From Caldifarciminota bacterium (GTDB lineage Bacteria; WOR-3; Hydrothermia; UBA1063; CAJXJZ01): 5,555 bases of DNA. Where the stretch lies: NCBI GenBank assembly GCA_027073945.1, contig JALTEL010000618.1, forward strand, positions 1 to 5,555. The letters run 5' to 3'. This document shows, piece after piece, positions 269 to 5,555 of this stretch. Position numbers and translations under genes: made by a program. The notes under the pieces are model-generated. The model did no database searches. It saw only the letters and a program-made list of their open reading frames with translations, and had not been told where the DNA came from. The stretch's first letter is position 1, and each line of letters begins with the position of its first letter.

Positions 269-283
269 CATTCCTTCCTCGTC

Positions 284-736
284 CTAATTCACGGAACTGA
301 GCCGGAACAGGCATACATCATTCCCCATGGAAATACACTTCTCCTCGGTGGCATAGTACTTCTTTCCGAGAGTCCTCGAGATTATTCCGGCCAGATAGCC
401 CCGTGTAAAATCGCATGAAGGTGCTGTTTTCTTCCCGTTCGCCTTTGCTTCCAGAGATTCCTCGAACACCACGCTTATCTTTCCATCGTCTTCCAGAAGG
501 CGCGCCCTTCCCAGCCCTATCTCGTGCCATATCTCCTCGAATATCTCGGAGAGGTTGTCCATACTAACCTCCAGATTGAGTTTTCTCATAATCTCATAAC
601 CGCTTCTGTAGCCGTAGCGAAACAGAACGCCGCCTGCCACATCCTCGTCCACGAGGCCAGTCATTTCCTTTCTGAGGGTTGCAAGCCCTTCTACGGGCAT
701 AATGTAGAATTCGGTAAGATATATCTCGTCAGACAC
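284..736 (-). CDS. V4R-domain (Bet3/4-vinyl-reductase-like) protein
   Basis: A small soluble protein (150 residues from GTG-736) made almost entirely of a V4R domain. Family features seen are the helical 'GGVLFRYGYRSGYEI' stretch at about 34-49, and a C-terminal signature with Cys108, GYLAG at 113-117, Glu131, Cys134, Gly138 and Cys142 followed by a beta strand (LFRL). V4R domains bind small hydrophobic ligands or metals in bacteriochlorophyll BchJ and in regulators, and are structurally related to Bet3 of the eukaryotic TRAPP complex; the three cysteines suggest a metal or ligand site. It is the last gene of the operon. I prefer GTG at 736-734 because a G-rich stretch (748-742) sits 5 bases ahead and the 8-base overlap with the GTPase stop copies the overlap at the previous junction. 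ATG at 760 would add eight residues and is possible. No membrane segment is visible. The exact ligand is unknown; its link to the GTPase is inferred from the operon. Confidence 0.85.
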   Translation of the reverse strand: MSDEIYLTEFYIMPVEGLATLRKEMTGLVDEDVAGGVLFRYGYRSGYEIMRKLNLEVSMDNLSEIFEEIWHEIGLGRARLLEDDGKISVVFEESLEAKANGKKTAPSCDFTRGYLAGIISRTLGKKYYATEEKCISMGNDVCLFRLSSVN

Positions 737-1262
737 CCGCGCCCCCCCTTCTGTTCTCATGCTGTTCCATGATGGAAGCGGCTAAGGTAAAAAAGAGGCG
801 CTGCACACCGTCTCCCTGCTTTGCGCTGGTAAGAAAGAACGGGGCATTAATCTCTGCCGCCAGTTCCTCGATTTCGTCTATGGTAACTTCGATCCTATCC
901 ACAAGGTCCGCCTTATTTGCGGCGATTACGAGAGGTACGCCCGGAGCGATTCTGTAAAAGTGCTCTACCCAGTTCTTTATCTCCATGAATGTTTCCCTGC
1001 GCGTCAGGTCGAATACGAGAATGCCGCCCGATGAACCCTTATAATATGCAAGATGCAGGCTCCCCTTCTTTTCTCCCAGCATGTCCCATATGAAAAGGGA
1101 AAGGGAGGTCCCGGCCATGTTCAGTTCCTTCTTGGTAATCTTCGTACCTATGGTGTTGATGTACTCGTCGCTGAAGATATCGTACACATACCTGCGAATC
1201 AGAGAGGTCTTTCCCACCGAATGCTCGCCCAGCATGACCACTTTTTTTACAATGTCACTCAT
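729..1262 (-). CDS. Rab/Ras-like small GTPase
   Basis: A complete single-domain GTPase of 177 residues, the size of eukaryotic Ras/Rab proteins. Motifs in order: G1 P-loop GEHSVGKT at 12-19; G2 Thr37 in YINTIGT, very like the Rab YxxTIG switch I; G3 WDMLGE at 59-64; G4 NKAD at 116-119; G5 TSAK at 145-148. The G3 is unusual: the common WDTAGQ has become WDMLGE, so the residue matching Ras Gln61 is Glu64. The C-terminus (HENRRGGAGV) has no cysteine for prenylation and no membrane segment, so any membrane contact would need a partner. The start at ATG 1262-1260 is fixed by a perfect AGGAGG six bases upstream; the longer open frame to 1373 is arginine-rich out-of-frame sequence from the upstream gene. 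It overlaps the ribbon-helix-helix gene by 8 bases and the V4R gene by 8 (or 32). Expected role: a GTP/GDP switch. Its effector and exchange factor are not shown; the V4R neighbour is the obvious candidate partner. Confidence 0.93.
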   Translation of the reverse strand: MSDIVKKVVMLGEHSVGKTSLIRRYVYDIFSDEYINTIGTKITKKELNMAGTSLSLFIWDMLGEKKGSLHLAYYKGSSGGILVFDLTRRETFMEIKNWVEHFYRIAPGVPLVIAANKADLVDRIEVTIDEIEELAAEINAPFFLTSAKQGDGVQRLFFTLAASIMEQHENRRGGAGV

Positions 1263-1524
1263 TCTCGTCCTCCTCGAAAAGCACGGAGCGCTCGTAGTCG
1301 GAAACCATCTTTGCCATGAGGCCCTTCCCCTTCTGCTCGCCGTACATCCTCTGAATCTCCTTCTGCTTCTCAAGCCACTCCCTGATGGAATCCCTTATGA
1401 CCTCCGACGGATTGAAATTGTGTTCCCGACAGAATGCGAAGAACTCTGTGGCCGTCTCCGAAAAGTCTCTGGTAACGGAGATGTGAATCTGGTCTCCGGG
1501 TCGGTATTCCTTCGTCTTTTTCAT
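1255..1524 (-). CDS. Ribbon-helix-helix-like small protein, likely DNA-binding
   Basis: An 89-residue protein and first gene of the leftward operon. Its layout suits a ribbon-helix-helix fold: a basic N-terminus, a short beta strand (DQIHISVTRD, 11-20), a first helix (SETATEFFAFCREHN, 22-36), a turn (FNPS) and a second helix with the typical SEVIRDSIREWL pattern (40-51). The helix continues as a charged stretch to about residue 67 and the protein ends in an acidic tail (FEEDENE). Such proteins bind operator DNA as dimers and often repress their own operon. A perfect inverted repeat lies upstream of the promoter (1582-1601). The start at 1524 leaves a leader of about 13 bases containing GTGGGC after a clear TATA box. 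The 3' end overlaps the GTPase start and carries its Shine-Dalgarno. Alternative: a small GTPase-associated adaptor rather than a repressor; the fold call is by pattern only. Confidence 0.8.
   Translation of the reverse strand: MKKTKEYRPGDQIHISVTRDFSETATEFFAFCREHNFNPSEVIRDSIREWLEKQKEIQRMYGEQKGKGLMAKMVSDYERSVLFEEDENE
1269..1274 (-). promoter_or_regulatory. Strong Shine-Dalgarno fixing the GTPase start
   Basis: The minus strand reads AGGAGG here, with six bases to the ATG at 1262. It lies inside the codons for the acidic tail of the upstream gene. It decides between the ATG at 1262 and the longer open frame that begins at 1373. Confidence 0.85.
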
Positions 1525-1559
1525 CTGCCCACGCTCTATCGTGCGGTATTATGGCATGG

Positions 1560-1567
1560 TATTTAAA
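1560..1567 (-). promoter_or_regulatory. TATA box of the RHH-GTPase-V4R operon
   Basis: The minus strand reads TTTAAATA, identical to the box at 96-103. Its centre lies about 40 bases before the ATG at 1524, so the expected transcription start is near 1537 with a leader of about 13 bases. The motif is seen; the start site is inferred. Confidence 0.7.
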
Positions 1568-1581
1568 CCTAATGTAAGAGT

Positions 1582-1601
1582 ATGTATAAACTTGTATACA
1601 T
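1582..1601. promoter_or_regulatory. Perfect inverted repeat, candidate operator
   Basis: ATGTATA (1582-1588) and TATACAT (1595-1601) are perfect inverse complements separated by six bases. The element lies about 15 bp upstream of the TATA box of the leftward operon and about 130 bp upstream of the probable rightward promoter. This is where a repressor or activator dimer could control the leftward operon, whose first gene is itself a likely DNA-binding protein. A 7-bp A+T-rich arm is short enough that chance is not excluded. Confidence 0.45.
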
Positions 1602-1770: not shown

Positions 1771-2052
1771 GTGATTACCCAGATACACAGTTTAGTTCCC
1801 CCGTACGGCAACCGAAAAAGCAAGAGTTGTGAGTATATCGAGAACTGGGAGGGAATTGAACACGTCTCGGCAAAAGATTTCATACCAAAAAGAGTGATGA
1901 ATGCTTCAACAGACCTTAGAGGAGGGCGTGCAAAGAGTCCACGATTTTGTGAGGACAACAGCCGCAAAGAGAATCTCCCCACTGAAAACCATTTTGTAAA
2001 GATTATGTCATTCCAAGATACTCGCATACCGATTTTCGAAGGTGGTAGCTAA
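1771..2052 (+). CDS. Orphan 93-residue hydrophilic protein; candidate precursor peptide for the ATP-grasp ligases
   Basis: I recognise no family. The product is hydrophilic and rich in Lys, Arg, Glu, Asn and Ser, with Cys20 and Cys60, no signal peptide and no membrane segment. It opens MITQIHSLVPPYGNRK and ends in SFQDTRIPIFEGGS. Reality of the gene is supported by the GGTGAT site before its GTG start, a TATA-like box at normal distance, and a TAATG junction sharing one base with the first ATP-grasp gene, the sign of coupled translation. Being first in a unit of two ATP-grasp ligases plus an ABC-2 exporter is where graspetide precursors stand. Possible ligation residues (Thr71, Glu72, Ser80, Asp83, Thr84, Glu90) occur near the C-terminus, but I see neither the microviridin-type PFFARFLE leader nor a repeated Thr/Ser-Glu/Asp core. 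The terminal GGS is partly dictated by the next gene's Shine-Dalgarno. Precursor role: inference only. Alternative: a small accessory or regulatory protein. Confidence 0.6.
   Translation: MITQIHSLVPPYGNRKSKSCEYIENWEGIEHVSAKDFIPKRVMNASTDLRGGRAKSPRFCEDNSRKENLPTENHFVKIMSFQDTRIPIFEGGS
2039..2045 (+). promoter_or_regulatory. Shine-Dalgarno of ATP-grasp gene 1, embedded in the small ORF
   Basis: AAGGTGG ends six bases before the ATG at 2052 and lies within the last codons of the preceding small protein (the Glu-Gly-Gly part of its tail). With the TAATG stop/start junction it indicates coupled translation. Confidence 0.65.
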
Positions 2053-2999
2053 TGGATATAGGCGTTTTTGGGAACCCAATGGATCCGTGTGTTTCAGCTA
2101 TAAAAAAGAGCGCTGAAAGAATGGGGGCAGGCTCAAAAATACTTGACCTGAGAGAACTCAGAAAAAAAAGATTTGCCATAATGGCCAACAAGAAAGAGGA
2201 GGGCATAAAACTGAGAATTGGAGATAAAGACATTGAGTGGCTGGGAGACATAAAAGCATGGTATGTCCGCCAGATTCCCCTGAAAGTGACCTTCCAGAAA
2301 CCCCCTGAGAATCTGGATGCTCATAACAGATTGGTTAAAGAGGAACCAGAATGGGCCAGCATAGAGGAATCCCTTATAAGAGCCATATCCGATCATGCGC
2401 TGGTGGTGAACCCTCTACGCACACAGATTCTTCAGTATCAGAAGACCTATCAACACCATATTTTGTCAAAGCACAGGCTCCCCATACCGGAGTGGCGCGT
2501 CGAAATGCCGACAGAAGAATATGTTGCAGAGGGAGAAGATACCAATAAATGGGTCCTGAAAGCCCACTCCATCGGAACGGTCGTCAGAGAACTGAATCAT
2601 ACCGATATCGAGGAAGCGAAAAAAGCTGATTTGTGGCCAAGGGCTCCTCCGATACTACAGAGAAAAATTGCTGGAGAGCCGATAAGAGTGGCAGCGGTGG
2701 AGGAAGAAGTTATAGGCGCCTATGCAATTAAGACAGAAAAACTTGATGTGCGTGAGGGATTCTTACAGGGGGCTGCAAGGGCCGAACAAATAGCACCGGA
2801 TGAAGAGCTGATCGAACTGACGATAAGGACACTGGAAGCTCTTGGCCTGTTTTTCTCCGAGGTAGATATGATTAAAACCCATGATGGCCTTTTTGTCCTT
2901 GAGGGGAACCCATCGCCGGGATTTGCATTCTCCGAAACGATTGGAATACCCGTAAGCGAAAGACTTATAGCACACATGATTGAAAGAGCAAAAAGATGA
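2052..2999 (+). CDS. ATP-grasp ligase 1 (RimK/MvdD-like)
   Basis: A 315-residue ATP-grasp enzyme, a typical length for RimK and graspetide-ligase families. The N-terminal pre-ATP-grasp domain (about 1-115) opens MDIGVFGNP and contains YVRQIP at 71-76, like the WYRR-type strand of MvdC/MvdD ligases. VVNP at 118-121 precedes the helix that in RimK ends at the 'GIPVP' strand (here HRLPIPEW, 141-148). ATP-binding residues: Lys170; loop SIGT 173-176; QRKIAGEPIRV at 203-213. Mg-binding acids: Asp272, Glu284, Asn286 in VLEGNPSPG. Family chemistry: ATP-driven carboxylate activation as acyl phosphate and attack by an amine or hydroxyl, forming an amide or ester. The glycine-rich loop is poorer than usual (KAHSIGT instead of GSxG), so activity or specificity may differ from its partner. 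Substrate unknown; the adjacent small protein is the best candidate. Alternatives: a small-molecule ligase (coenzyme or amino-acid ligation). Confidence 0.88.
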   Translation: MDIGVFGNPMDPCVSAIKKSAERMGAGSKILDLRELRKKRFAIMANKKEEGIKLRIGDKDIEWLGDIKAWYVRQIPLKVTFQKPPENLDAHNRLVKEEPEWASIEESLIRAISDHALVVNPLRTQILQYQKTYQHHILSKHRLPIPEWRVEMPTEEYVAEGEDTNKWVLKAHSIGTVVRELNHTDIEEAKKADLWPRAPPILQRKIAGEPIRVAAVEEEVIGAYAIKTEKLDVREGFLQGAARAEQIAPDEELIELTIRTLEALGLFFSEVDMIKTHDGLFVLEGNPSPGFAFSETIGIPVSERLIAHMIERAKR

Positions 3000-3020
3000 G
3001 AGCCAGCACGGAAGTGGTGC

Positions 3021-3992
3021 ATGAAAGTCGAAACACAAACTTTTTATAATGACTCTCCATCTCAGGCATCCATGATTGGCCTCATAGGACAAAAAAAAGA
3101 CCCCCAGGTAATGCTTGTAAAAGAACGACTTGAAGAGATGAGCAGAAAGGCTCGCATTATAGATTTTCGGCCCTTTCCAAAAAATGCACCGATAACCGTG
3201 AAGGACAGCTCTGTCATATACGAAGAAAACGACCTTATGGATTTTTCCGTATTCTATCTTCGTCAACTGGGATATCTCTGGCCCATTCCCCAGAAAGAGA
3301 TGAGTGAGGACGAGTGGAAACACTACTATGACCGCTACATGGAATACCTGACTGCAGAGAGAGAAACTCTTTCCCTTAAACACTCAGTTATACGCATTCT
3401 GGATATGGAACGGACGGTTGTGAATCCATACGACAGTTTTATATATCACAGACTCAAGTTCTATGAAGATTTTTTATTTCGCAAAAAAGGATTCAATGTT
3501 CCATATTCTTTTGCTACCAATGACCTGAATACGGTTGAAAAGGAGAAGTATGTCTACAAAGGGCTTGCAGGAGGCCTGGGCACCCACATGGTGGATGATG
3601 AATTCTTCAAACAACACAGCGACATATTTGAACAGAGACCAGGGCTTTTCCAGAGATACATAGATGGGAAAAACCTCCGCATCTATGTTGTGGGAAATGA
3701 GGTTGTAGGCGCGGGCTTTCTCCTTCAGGAAAAAAAGCATGTGGACTCCAGAATCGGACAGACAGGCGTGGAGGTATTCGAACCACCAGAGGATATTAAA
3801 GAAATCGCGGTTAAAGCCACTGAAACACTTGGGATGAAATTCTCGGGCGTTGATTTCATGGTTACGGAAGGGGGGGAATTCTATCTCCTTGAGGCAAATC
3901 CTTCTCCCATGTTTGCTGGCTACGAATATATGACCCATCATCCGGTGTCGCAGAAACTGGCAGAATTTCTTGTTTCATACGCCAAAAAATAG
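3021..3992 (+). CDS. ATP-grasp ligase 2 (RimK/MvdD-like)
   Basis: A 323-residue paralogue of the preceding enzyme. It has a pre-ATP-grasp domain with FYLRQLGY (78-85), a helical segment with ERETLSL (113-119), VVNP (133-136), then NVPYSFATND (159-168), whose VP...TND pattern recalls MvdC/MvdD graspetide ligases. The ATP-binding part shows Lys180, a full glycine loop GGLGT (184-188), QRYIDGKNLRIYVV (211-224), Asp278, Glu291 and Asn293 in LLEANPSPM. It therefore keeps all the elements expected of an active ATP-grasp ligase. It begins 21 bases after ligase 1 with GGTG just ahead of the ATG. An internal ATG (Met18, at 3072) aligns with the start of ligase 1 and is an alternative start, but has no clear Shine-Dalgarno. 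The two enzymes clearly differ in sequence, so they may act one after the other on different residues or with different bond types, as MdnB and MdnC do on microviridin; this is inference. Confidence 0.9.
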   Translation: MKVETQTFYNDSPSQASMIGLIGQKKDPQVMLVKERLEEMSRKARIIDFRPFPKNAPITVKDSSVIYEENDLMDFSVFYLRQLGYLWPIPQKEMSEDEWKHYYDRYMEYLTAERETLSLKHSVIRILDMERTVVNPYDSFIYHRLKFYEDFLFRKKGFNVPYSFATNDLNTVEKEKYVYKGLAGGLGTHMVDDEFFKQHSDIFEQRPGLFQRYIDGKNLRIYVVGNEVVGAGFLLQEKKHVDSRIGQTGVEVFEPPEDIKEIAVKATETLGMKFSGVDFMVTEGGEFYLLEANPSPMFAGYEYMTHHPVSQKLAEFLVSYAKK

Positions 3993-3996
3993 ACAC

Positions 3997-4000
3997 GGAG
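3997..4000 (+). promoter_or_regulatory. Shine-Dalgarno fixing the ABC ATPase start
   Basis: GGAG (extended GGAGAT) lies eight bases before the ATG at 4009. The open frame continues back to a TTG at 3970 inside ligase 2, but that start lacks such a site and would overlap the upstream gene, so 4009 is preferred. Confidence 0.7.
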
Positions 4001-4008
4001 ATAATAAA

Positions 4009-5031
4009 ATGGAAGCAGAAATAGACTCAGGGAGCCAGGACGCCATAGTAATGAGAAATCTTGTGAAAAAGTACAGGGTGAAAAAAAGGGATAATCAGAG
4101 TAAAAAGAGGGAAATAACTGCGCTGGATCAACTCTCACTTTCAATACGGAGGGGTGAAATATATGGGCTCATAGGCCAAAACGGAGCCGGTAAAACAACC
4201 ACCCTGAAGATACTTTCAGGCCTTATACTGCCCGACAAGGGGGAGTGCACAGTGCTTGGCCACGATGTTGTTAAAGAGGTGGGCACCGTCCGTAAAGAGA
4301 TCGGTGTTTCGGTTGGAGAATTTACACGAGCACTCTACTGGAGACTTAGCGGATTGGAAAATCTCCTGTTCTTTGCCAAACTTCGCGGGATAAAAAAACC
4401 GAAGAGAAGGGCAATGGAGCTCGTAAGACTCATGGACCTTGAAAAGTGGAAAGACGAAAAGGTGATGAGGTACTCCACCGGTATGAAGCATAAGCTATCC
4501 ATAGCAATCGCTCTTCTCCACAATCCTCCTGTTCTGTTCCTTGACGAGCCGCTCACCGGCATAGATCCAGTTAGTGCGCACCAGATAAAAAAGTTTATAA
4601 GAGAAGAACTGTCTGATAAGACAATTATATGGACAAGCCATAACCTATTCGAGATTGAAGAAATGTGCAATCGCATAGGGCTGCTGAAAAGAGGAAAACT
4701 GATTCTAGAAGGGAAAGCGGAAGACCTTAAAAAGGCCTACTGGAACTACGAAAAGTTGATCATAAAAACATCGACACCAGAATCTTTCCTTGAGCTGGAT
4801 GGGAGTAGCCGGACTTCAACGGGTGTTTTAATAGAAACCAACAATCTAAATAAAACCATGAAACATCTGGGGGGGATCCTCGCACATGGTGCAGAGGTAG
4901 AGGAGATATCCACCATTCGACCCACGCTGGAAGACATATTCATGCATGAGATTGAAGAAGGAGAGACGGATAATAGAGGAAATAAGAATATCGAGAGGGG
5001 AAAACATGAAGAAAGCGCAAATAATGGGTGA
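4009..5031 (+). CDS. ABC-2-type transporter ATP-binding protein
   Basis: A 340-residue ATPase subunit of a drug/peptide-export type (DrrA/CcmA/NatA-like) ABC transporter. Motifs: Walker A GQNGAGKT at 56-63; a Q-loop region with the RALYWRLSGLENLLFF pattern (107-122) typical of this branch, in which the usual Gln is not evident; signature YSTGMKHKL (155-163) in place of LSGGQ, as is normal for the branch; Walker B VLFLDE (175-180) with catalytic Glu180; D-loop GIDP (184-187); switch His211. A C-terminal extension of about 100 residues follows, ending PTLEDIFMHEIEEGE and a charged tail, a family feature. It would dimerise in the cytoplasm and power the permease next to it. The start is 16 bases after ligase 2 and the end overlaps the permease by 26 bases, so all belong to one transcript. 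There is no fused peptidase domain. Substrate inferred to be the product of the upstream enzymes. Confidence 0.95.
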   Translation: MEAEIDSGSQDAIVMRNLVKKYRVKKRDNQSKKREITALDQLSLSIRRGEIYGLIGQNGAGKTTTLKILSGLILPDKGECTVLGHDVVKEVGTVRKEIGVSVGEFTRALYWRLSGLENLLFFAKLRGIKKPKRRAMELVRLMDLEKWKDEKVMRYSTGMKHKLSIAIALLHNPPVLFLDEPLTGIDPVSAHQIKKFIREELSDKTIIWTSHNLFEIEEMCNRIGLLKRGKLILEGKAEDLKKAYWNYEKLIIKTSTPESFLELDGSSRTSTGVLIETNNLNKTMKHLGGILAHGAEVEEISTIRPTLEDIFMHEIEEGETDNRGNKNIERGKHEESANNG

Positions 5032-5555
5032 GTTGAAAAAATCCATATACTTCGTCGAGAGAGACCTGAAACTCCTGCTGAGTTACCGCTTTGCATTTGT
5101 CATGATGTTTTCAAGCGTATTTTTCAATCTCATATATATGGTGCTCTTCGGTTCAATGTTTGGAACAAACACGCCAGCAGCTATAAAACCGTACGGAACA
5201 AACTACATCTCATACATTCTCGTAGGGTCTGTCGGTTGGAGTTTCATGTGGAGCATAGCCGGAGCAACATCCTCGGCTTTGAGAAACGAAATGCTGCTTG
5301 GTACCTTTGAGTCCATACTACTTACCGGTACAGAATTGCCAACGATGATGGTGGCATATATGATATTTGGCTCACTTTTTGGCCTGATCTCAATGGGAGT
5401 AATCGTATTGGTCGGAATAGCCATTCTCGGGGTATCCGCCCTATCCGGGGCAGGGTTAGCTACCTGGGCACTCTTCGGCATATCCATAGCGATGATGGGA
5501 GGGCTGGGCATGGTGTTCGGAGGATTGACTATCTGGGTAAAAAACATTGGACAGG
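5006..5555 (+). CDS. ABC-2-type transporter permease, N-terminal part (runs off the right edge)
   Basis: The first 183 residues of a membrane permease; the frame stays open to the window end. The start ATG at 5006 has GAGAGGGG (4993-5000) five bases ahead; an internal ATG at 5024 is less likely. After a short cytoplasmic N-terminus (MKKAQIMGELKKSIYFVERD), hydrophobic segments lie at about 27-53, 68-91, 112-141 and 149-177. Between segments 2 and 3 is the cytoplasmic loop SSALRNEMLLGTFESILLTG with the E-x3-GT(F/L)E pattern typical of ABC-2 permeases, the part that contacts the ATPase. A full member would have about six helices and 240-280 residues, so roughly one third is missing. It pairs with the ATPase encoded immediately before it as an exporter. 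Whether later genes (a second permease, protease) follow cannot be seen. Confidence 0.92.
   Translation, partial: MKKAQIMGELKKSIYFVERDLKLLLSYRFAFVMMFSSVFFNLIYMVLFGSMFGTNTPAAIKPYGTNYISYILVGSVGWSFMWSIAGATSSALRNEMLLGTFESILLTGTELPTMMVAYMIFGSLFGLISMGVIVLVGIAILGVSALSGAGLATWALFGISIAMMGGLGMVFGGLTIWVKNIGQ

What the first reader, a model, noticed from the sequence alone, without database searches (positions are those of the whole stretch)
1771..5555. Candidate archaeal ATP-grasp-modified peptide (graspetide-like) cluster
Seen: one tightly packed unit with an orphan 93-residue ORF, two distinct RimK/MvdD-like ATP-grasp ligases and an ABC-2 ATPase/permease pair, with junctions of TAATG, 21, 16 and -26 bases. 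Known: microviridin-type graspetide clusters have precursor, two ATP-grasp ligases and an ABC transporter. Inferred: the orphan ORF is modified by the ligases and exported. No known graspetide leader or core motif is visible, so if real it would be a class not matching the described ones.
Basis: partly seen in the sequence, partly recalled or inferred. Interest (0 to 1): 0.85.

Follow-up and report, generated by a model that had tools for sequence, protein, structure and literature searches.

The report
Archaeal two-ligase graspetide cluster, precursor unseen
An uncultured archaeon carries a gene cluster that very probably makes and exports a small side-chain-cyclised peptide of the known graspetide (plesiocin) kind, using two sister enzymes; the small open reading frame proposed as its starting peptide is probably not a gene, and the real one is not in this stretch.

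Summary
The gene layout is as described: lig1 2052-2999, lig2 3021-3992, ABC ATPase 4009-5031, ABC-2 permease from 5006 to the window end. Both ligases match the PsnB (plesiocin synthetase) family best by sequence profile; lig1 also by predicted fold.

Among 80 loci with ligase relatives, 62 carry a plesiocin-like TTxAIGEE-type core within 1.5 kb. Across 389 Thermoplasmatota genomes a DNA pattern for that core occurs in three, all holding a close ligase relative.

The closest complete relative (L003) has the same order: lig1, lig2, ABC ATPase, permease. A 26-residue peptide, MSNWNPKWYTTLAIGEEDDPWWPIVA, lies between lig2 and the ATPase.

It has no homologue found, weak coding signal, no core motif and no counterpart in L002 or L003. 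No TTxxxxEE core lies anywhere in the window, which ends inside the permease, so the precursor is unseen.

New here: a two-ligase, exporter-linked archaeal branch whose precursors are 26-38 residues and lack the LFIxEL-type leader.

The parts
1771..2052 (+). 93-aa GTG ORF proposed as precursor; judged more likely spurious or a transcribed leader than a graspetide precursor
2052..2999 (+). lig1: diverged PsnB-family ATP-grasp ligase, paralogue of lig2
3021..3992 (+). lig2: PsnB-family ATP-grasp ligase (graspetide-synthetase type)
4009..5031 (+). ABC transporter ATPase (DrrA-like), 49% identical to the one beside the L003 ligases
5006..5555 (+). ABC-2 type permease, incomplete at the window end, 50% identical to that of L003

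Best explanation
This is an archaeal (Thermoplasmatota) graspetide cluster of the plesiocin/PsnB kind. Lig2, with its paralogue lig1, uses ATP to activate Glu/Asp side chains of a very small ribosomal peptide and closes them onto neighbouring Thr (ester) or possibly Lys (amide) side chains; the product is exported by the ABC-2 transporter encoded downstream. The substrate is most likely a short peptide (about 26-40 aa) with a TTxAIGEED-type core, as in the orthologous clusters, encoded just past the permease (outside the window) or unlinked, and not the 93-aa ORF. Shown: ligase family, gene order, transporter genes, and the core motif beside relatives' ligases. Inferred: the substrate in this organism, bond type, division of labour between the ligases, and export of the product.
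For: Lig2 and lig1 profiles find PsnB (7drm) first, at E 1e-38 and 9.3e-22; the lig1 model (pLDDT 83) has PsnB chains as its 14 best fold matches, best E 1.5e-19; 14 columns invariant over 27 ligases including lig1 and lig2. Core motif in 63 of 80 ligase loci, in 62 within 1.5 kb; 193 hits in 306 kb near the ligases, 3 in 1045 kb farther away, these 3 being the precursor of L008 itself. DNA pattern for the core in 389 Thermoplasmatota genomes: only G001, G002, G003, which with G004 are the only ones of the same 389 with a ligase match better than E 1e-30. L003 keeps lig1-lig2-peptide-ABC-ABC. Tree: window lig1 with the L002/L003 lig1 (100/96), window lig2 with theirs in a clade of 25 (96/93).
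Against: No TTxxxxEE core in any frame of the window and no small ORF with a ribosome-site-like sequence carrying one; the slot used in L003, between lig2 and the ATPase, is only 16 nt here. 13 of 80 ligase loci show neither the motif (17 lack it) nor the close variants seen in four of those 17, so a different core cannot be excluded. Window lig1 sits on a long branch. The plesiocin core pattern is recalled; PDB searches with four relatives' precursors found no precursor chain. Bond chemistry is untested.
Confidence: 0.77

Rival explanations
1. The 93-aa ORF is the precursor, of a non-canonical core class; its C-terminus (DTRIPIFEGGS) would be a degenerate relative of TTLAIGEEGG, and the diverged lig1 has co-evolved with it.
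For: Position just upstream of lig1 with TAATG overlap; GGTGAT before the GTG; by eye T, E and GG of DTRIPIFEGG fall in register with TTLAIGEEGG; window lig1 is on a long branch; 17 of 80 ligase loci lack the standard motif.
Against: No homologue found, codon score below all 100 gene windows, a plus-strand ORF this long in 32 of 2000 shuffles, no counterpart in L002 or L003, no TT....[ED][ED].
Confidence: 0.11
2. The ligases are RimK/LysX/MptN-like and add amino acids to a carrier protein, cofactor or small molecule that the transporter exports.
For: Pfam RimK matches and sub-threshold hits to RimK-family, LysX and MptN models; RimK and ArgX structures also match the lig1 fold, after PsnB.
Against: All these NCBIfam models are far below their cut-offs; PsnB is the best sequence and fold match; relatives sit beside TTxAIGEE peptides, not, in the loci looked at, beside LysW or cofactor genes (this last was not searched for).
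Confidence: 0.07
3. The cluster is a remnant: the ligases and exporter persist but the precursor gene has been lost.
For: No precursor in the window; the relative G323, with 94% GTPase identity, was found to lack the ligases.
Against: Reading frames are intact, catalytic columns conserved, relatives at 83% (lig1) and 94% (lig2) also hold full-length ligases; the window ends early.
Confidence: 0.05

Closest known systems
Plesiocin cluster (precursor PsnA2, ligase PsnB; PDB 7drm-7drp); graspetide 'group 2' by recall
   Same: Ligase family by profile and fold; relatives' cores TTxAIGEE fit the recalled TTxxxxEE pattern.
   Different: Two ligases instead of one (PMC8939145, section 3, states plesiocin needs a single ATP-grasp); ABC-2 exporter in the operon; in the Thermoplasmatota relatives one core per precursor and no LFIxEL-type leader; no core seen in this window.
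Microviridin cluster (MdnA, MdnB, MdnC, transporter)
   Same: Two paralogous ATP-grasp ligases plus ABC transporter.
   Different: MvdC/MvdD models far below cut-off; MdnC and AMdnB structures rank below PsnB; no PFFARFL leader in the 93-aa ORF or in the relatives' peptides (by reading).
RimK / LysX-ArgX / MptN amino-acid ligases
   Same: ATP-grasp fold and RimK Pfam domain.
   Different: Curated cut-offs not reached; the relatives' neighbours include core-motif peptides.

Membership tests
Plesiocin/PsnB-type graspetide cluster | ATP-grasp ligase of the PsnB family | tested here: met
   tree
Plesiocin/PsnB-type graspetide cluster | Conserved ATP-grasp catalytic and substrate-site columns (lig1 K131, K170, D232-x-R234, D272, N286; E284 nearly) in both ligases; their roles are recalled, not tested | tested here: met
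   27 sequences
Plesiocin/PsnB-type graspetide cluster | Precursor with TTxxxxEE core beside the ligase (pattern recalled) | tested here: inconclusive
   Absent from all six frames of the window, which ends in the permease; present in relatives L001, L002, L003 and L016
Plesiocin/PsnB-type graspetide cluster | One ligase makes all links | tested here: not met
   Two ligases in the window, L002 and L003; hence filed as a variant
Plesiocin/PsnB-type graspetide cluster | Leader segment of LFIxEL type before the core (recalled; seen by a rough pattern in 27 of 63 relatives' precursor ORFs) | tested here: inconclusive
   Not in L001, L002, L003 or L016; the window's precursor is unknown
Plesiocin/PsnB-type graspetide cluster | Side-chain ester links in the product | not testable with these tools
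   needs mass spectrometry
Microviridin cluster | MdnB and MdnC type ligases at curated score | tested here: not met
   MvdC 24.8 and 43 of 425 bits, MvdD 34.9 of 475
Microviridin cluster | PFFARFL leader in the precursor | tested here: not met
   not in the 93-aa ORF (read); no other precursor in the window
RimK/LysX/MptN amino-acid ligases | Curated family score | tested here: not met
   lig1 and lig2: rimK_fam 53.8 and 62.4 of 143.4; LysX_arch 48.9 and 38.4 of 275.6; MptN 46.5 and 63.1 of 350

The most novel reading that the evidence does not exclude
A leaderless two-ligase graspetide system of archaea: precursors of about 26-38 aa are recognised through the core and its tail (EEDDPWWP or EEDGSGDVVVL), lig2 makes the plesiocin-type double ester, and lig1 adds a second kind of link (for example a Lys amide). 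In the window's lineage lig1 has diverged together with a core that no longer reads TTxxxxEE.
Probability: 0.2. Interest if true: 0.72.

Novelty: new variant of a known kind. Interest (0 to 1): 0.52.

Why it matters
The passages seen of two surveys of archaeal RiPPs and metabolites name no graspetides. Here a PsnB-type ligase family with plesiocin-like cores is seen in Thermoplasmatota and haloarchaea, and a Thermoplasmatota branch pairs two ligases with precursors small enough (26 aa) to synthesise. That makes leader-free recognition and the division of labour between paired ligases directly testable. It also shows that such precursors are short enough to be missed by gene callers, and that the nearest small ORF is not always the precursor.

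Tried and rejected
Own genome of the window: none held. A lig1 scan of genome contigs and two scans of viral contigs gave no relatives. Searches of Thermoplasmatota genomes by phylum sample, order and class (27-31, 40, 42, 60) gave no close ligase relative beyond G001-G004; for the tool warns that an empty answer shows nothing by itself. Rfam and tRNA scans were empty. Promoter and terminator scans were at chance level; repeats gave nothing useful. Weak matches of the 93-aa ORF to Pfam NOPS (E 0.012, 16.2 bits, cut-off 27) and to a PHROG (E 0.28) were discarded. Precursors of L038, L003, L024 and L013 found no precursor chain in the PDB (61, 62, 107, 108), so the plesiocin core pattern rests on recall. 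A 15-aa ATG ORF (2005-2052) and a 32-aa ORF (1901-1999) were considered as precursors and dropped: neither carries a core motif, and one search lists no ribosome-site-like sequence for them. L042's two ligase hits overlap in different frames and were taken as one split gene, not a pair. RimK/LysX/MptN chemistry was put low on scores.

The contigs of P0002 (4,665 nt), P0010 (1,660 nt) and P0003/P0011 (87,381 nt) were not fetched: no tool at hand does it, and metagenome scans are capped at 0. That P0003 and P0011 share a contig is inferred from the equal contig length.
Full report
1. What is there. The two ligases are both RimK-type ATP-grasps; NCBIfam amino-acid-ligase and microviridin-ligase models hit them only far below cut-off. 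An ABC ATPase and an ABC-2 permease follow; the permease is cut by the window end. On the minus strand, 284-1524, lie a V4R-domain protein, a Ras-like GTPase and a small protein with a sub-threshold RHH match. In genome G323, whose GTPase is 94% identical, DNA similarity (86%) to the window ends at window position 1601, and the window DNA from 1370 on finds nothing further in that genome, nor does the lig2 profile. So the cluster probably begins in the gap after 1601; G323 may be incomplete.

2. The ligase family. Apart from itself lig1 finds eight proteins: two close (83% and 53% identical) and six at 25-32%. Lig2 finds 22, four of them with source names placing them in Thermoplasmatota, Thermoplasmata or Thermoplasmatales. 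A lig2 profile finds PsnB (7drm), the plesiocin ligase, at E 1e-38 over nearly its whole length; the next hit is at 7.3e-14. The lig1 profile finds it at 9.3e-22, next 5.2e-13. As a single sequence lig1 matches PsnB only at 4.5e-7 and over 164 residues, with RimK close behind (8.5e-6); lig2 matches at 1e-20. The predicted lig1 model (mean pLDDT 83) has PsnB chains as its 14 best fold matches, best E 1.5e-19; MdnC, LysX, ArgX and RimK follow closely (1.5e-16 to 4e-16), as expected for one fold. Over 27 aligned ligases 14 columns are invariant, among them K131, K170, D232-x-R234, D272 and N286 in lig1 numbering; E284 is nearly invariant.

3. The core motif. A scan of genome contigs with the lig2 alignment kept the best 80 loci of 183; some of the 80 are near duplicates (for example L012/L013, L019/L021, L034/L044). 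In 63 of 80 a T[TSV]xxxG[ED][ED]-type motif occurs, in 62 within 1.5 kb of the ligase; 193 hits fall in 306 kb near ligases and 3 in 1045 kb elsewhere, the three being L008's own precursor at 1.8 kb. Of the 17 loci without it, four (L047, L053, L055, L069) show a close variant such as STMAIGEEGG or YTQALGEDGG; 13 show none, a few of them with the ligase near a contig end. As a further control, a DNA pattern for TT-(NTN)-A-(NTN)-GEE was run over 389 Thermoplasmatota genomes: only G001 (two copies), G002 and G003 match; the pattern read backwards matches four other genomes. In the same 389 genomes the lig1/lig2-type profile matches 165 at E 0.001, but only G001-G004 better than 1e-30, the rest at 4.8e-17 or worse and so ordinary ATP-grasps. 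G004 carries TTQALGEE just before its ligase match (L016), which the DNA pattern does not cover. That plesiocin's core is TTxxxxEE is recalled; a held paper states that plesiocin has two ester links per repeat and speaks of adjacent crosslinks (PMC12291112, passages).

4. The orthologous clusters. L003 reads histidine kinase - lig1 - lig2 - 26-aa peptide - ABC ATPase - permease; L002 reads histidine kinase - lig1 - lig2 - 27-aa peptide - contig end. The ATPase and permease of L003 are 49% and 50% identical to the window's. In a tree of 105 ligases window lig1 groups with P0002, P0003 and the L002/L003 lig1 (100/96), next to a clade of 25 that holds window lig2 and the L002/L003 lig2 (96/93), the 30 together at 98/89. 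The root is arbitrary, window lig1 with P0002 and P0003 sits on a long branch (1.83), and many rows fail the composition test. Read at face value, the window has the same ligase pair as L002 and L003. Besides these, only L004 (Planctomycetota) of the 80 loci has two ligases. The peptides are MSNWNPKWYTTLAIGEEDDPWWPIVA and MSDFWKDKKYTTMAIGEEDEPWWPPIY; G001 adds two of 34 and 38 aa ending TTLAIGEEDGSGDVVVL. All four have a GGAGG ribosome site. A rough pattern for an LFIxEL-type leader fits 27 of 63 precursor ORFs but not those of L001, L002, L003 or L016; the 38-aa peptide of G001 lacks it by eye. The pattern also misses other leader types (HFVEDL of haloarchaea, HPF of cyanobacteria and gammaproteobacteria), so it is not a census of leaders. 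G001's two copies lie on different contigs, both near a contig end, so a precursor may sit away from its ligase.

5. The 93-aa ORF. No candidate in the protein database shares three five-residue words with it. With a codon model from 10,482 codons of the close relative G323 its score is 0.059; all 100 overlapping 93-codon windows from the window's other genes score higher (lowest 0.099), 9% of 500 out-of-frame windows reach it, and another plus frame of the same region, broken by nine stops, scores 0.069. Shuffles give such an ORF on the plus strand in 32 of 2000 cases and on either strand in 243. A single-sequence fold is without confidence (pLDDT 34), which says little for a peptide precursor. 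It holds no TT....[ED][ED]. For it speak a GGTGAT 3 nt before the GTG, the overlap with lig1, and a C-terminus DTRIPIFEGG that resembles TTLAIGEEGG by eye. I judge it more likely spurious, or a transcribed leader, than a precursor.

6. Where is the precursor? No six-frame TT....[ED][ED] exists in the window, and none of 15 small ORFs with a ribosome-site-like sequence carries a core. In the 63 loci with a motif the nearest copy is at most 1.8 kb from the ligase (median 71 nt). The window reaches 3.0 kb before and 1.6 kb past lig2 and ends in the permease; in L003 the permease goes on for about 90 residues more. A site after the permease is the simplest guess. Makarova et al. report ligase branches in which no precursor could be found, and suggest missed small ORFs or distant sites (PMC8939145, section 6 part 1).

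7. How it probably works. By analogy with PsnB, lig2 would activate the Glu side chains with ATP and let the Thr hydroxyls close two esters; lig1 may make a further link, as two paralogous ligases share the work in microviridin (PMC8939145, section 3). The ABC-2 pair would export the product. Bond types, division of labour and export are inferred; no call tests them.

8. Known or new. The kind is known. What differs is the pairing of ligases in a PsnB-type cluster (the same paper says plesiocin needs one), the tiny precursors without the LFIxEL-type leader, and the archaeal host. My searches listed no paper that by title or abstract start describes graspetides of Thermoplasmatota. For most papers I saw only the listing; of PMC8939145 the abstract, passages, sections 3 and 5 and part 1 of section 6; of PMC12291112, PMC13097080, PMC13003496, PMC9484694, PMC12144867 and PMC10105419 passages only. 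PMC12144867, a survey of archaeal RiPPs, holds none of the words ATP-grasp, microviridin, graspetide; PMC10105419 holds neither microviridin nor ATP-grasp (graspetide not searched there). Supplements were not seen, and Lee et al. 2020 and Ramesh et al. 2021 (recalled) were not read, so earlier mention of archaeal members cannot be excluded.

Noticed in passing
L022, L031, L037, L043 (haloarchaea): Single-ligase haloarchaeal loci with short precursors: an HFVEDLEER or HFVADLDER leader-like segment, a TTxAxGEE core and a TMACFETGC- or ITQACYETGC-like segment. Archaeal graspetide-like peptides with a leader, unlike the Thermoplasmatota ones.
   Followed up: partly
L004 9543-11952 (Planctomycetota): Two tandem PsnB-type ligases with a 70-aa ORF on the other strand holding three [TS]TLAIGEE cores: a possible second case of paired ligases.
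   Followed up: partly
L010 7426-8628 and L013 9241-9900 (Planctomycetota): Precursor ORFs with 17 and 13 copies of the core motif just upstream of one ligase.
   Followed up: no
L123 116-232 (genome G001, contig C8): A second TTLAIGEEDGSGDVVVL peptide gene (38 aa, GGAGG site) on a contig other than the ligase's, near a contig end.
   Followed up: partly
L002 6912-9089 and L003 28-2199: dCache-HAMP-PAS histidine kinase gene directly upstream of the two ligases in both relatives; not present upstream of lig1 in the window.
   Followed up: partly
window 269-1601: Minus-strand V4R / Ras-like GTPase / small RHH-like genes, 86% identical in DNA to genome G323, with similarity ending at 1601: the edge of a variable region.
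   Followed up: partly
L028, L033, L036, L062, L077 (gammaproteobacteria): PsnB-type ligase shortly downstream of a long ABC-transporter-like ORF and upstream of a TTxAxGEE precursor: another exporter arrangement.
   Followed up: no
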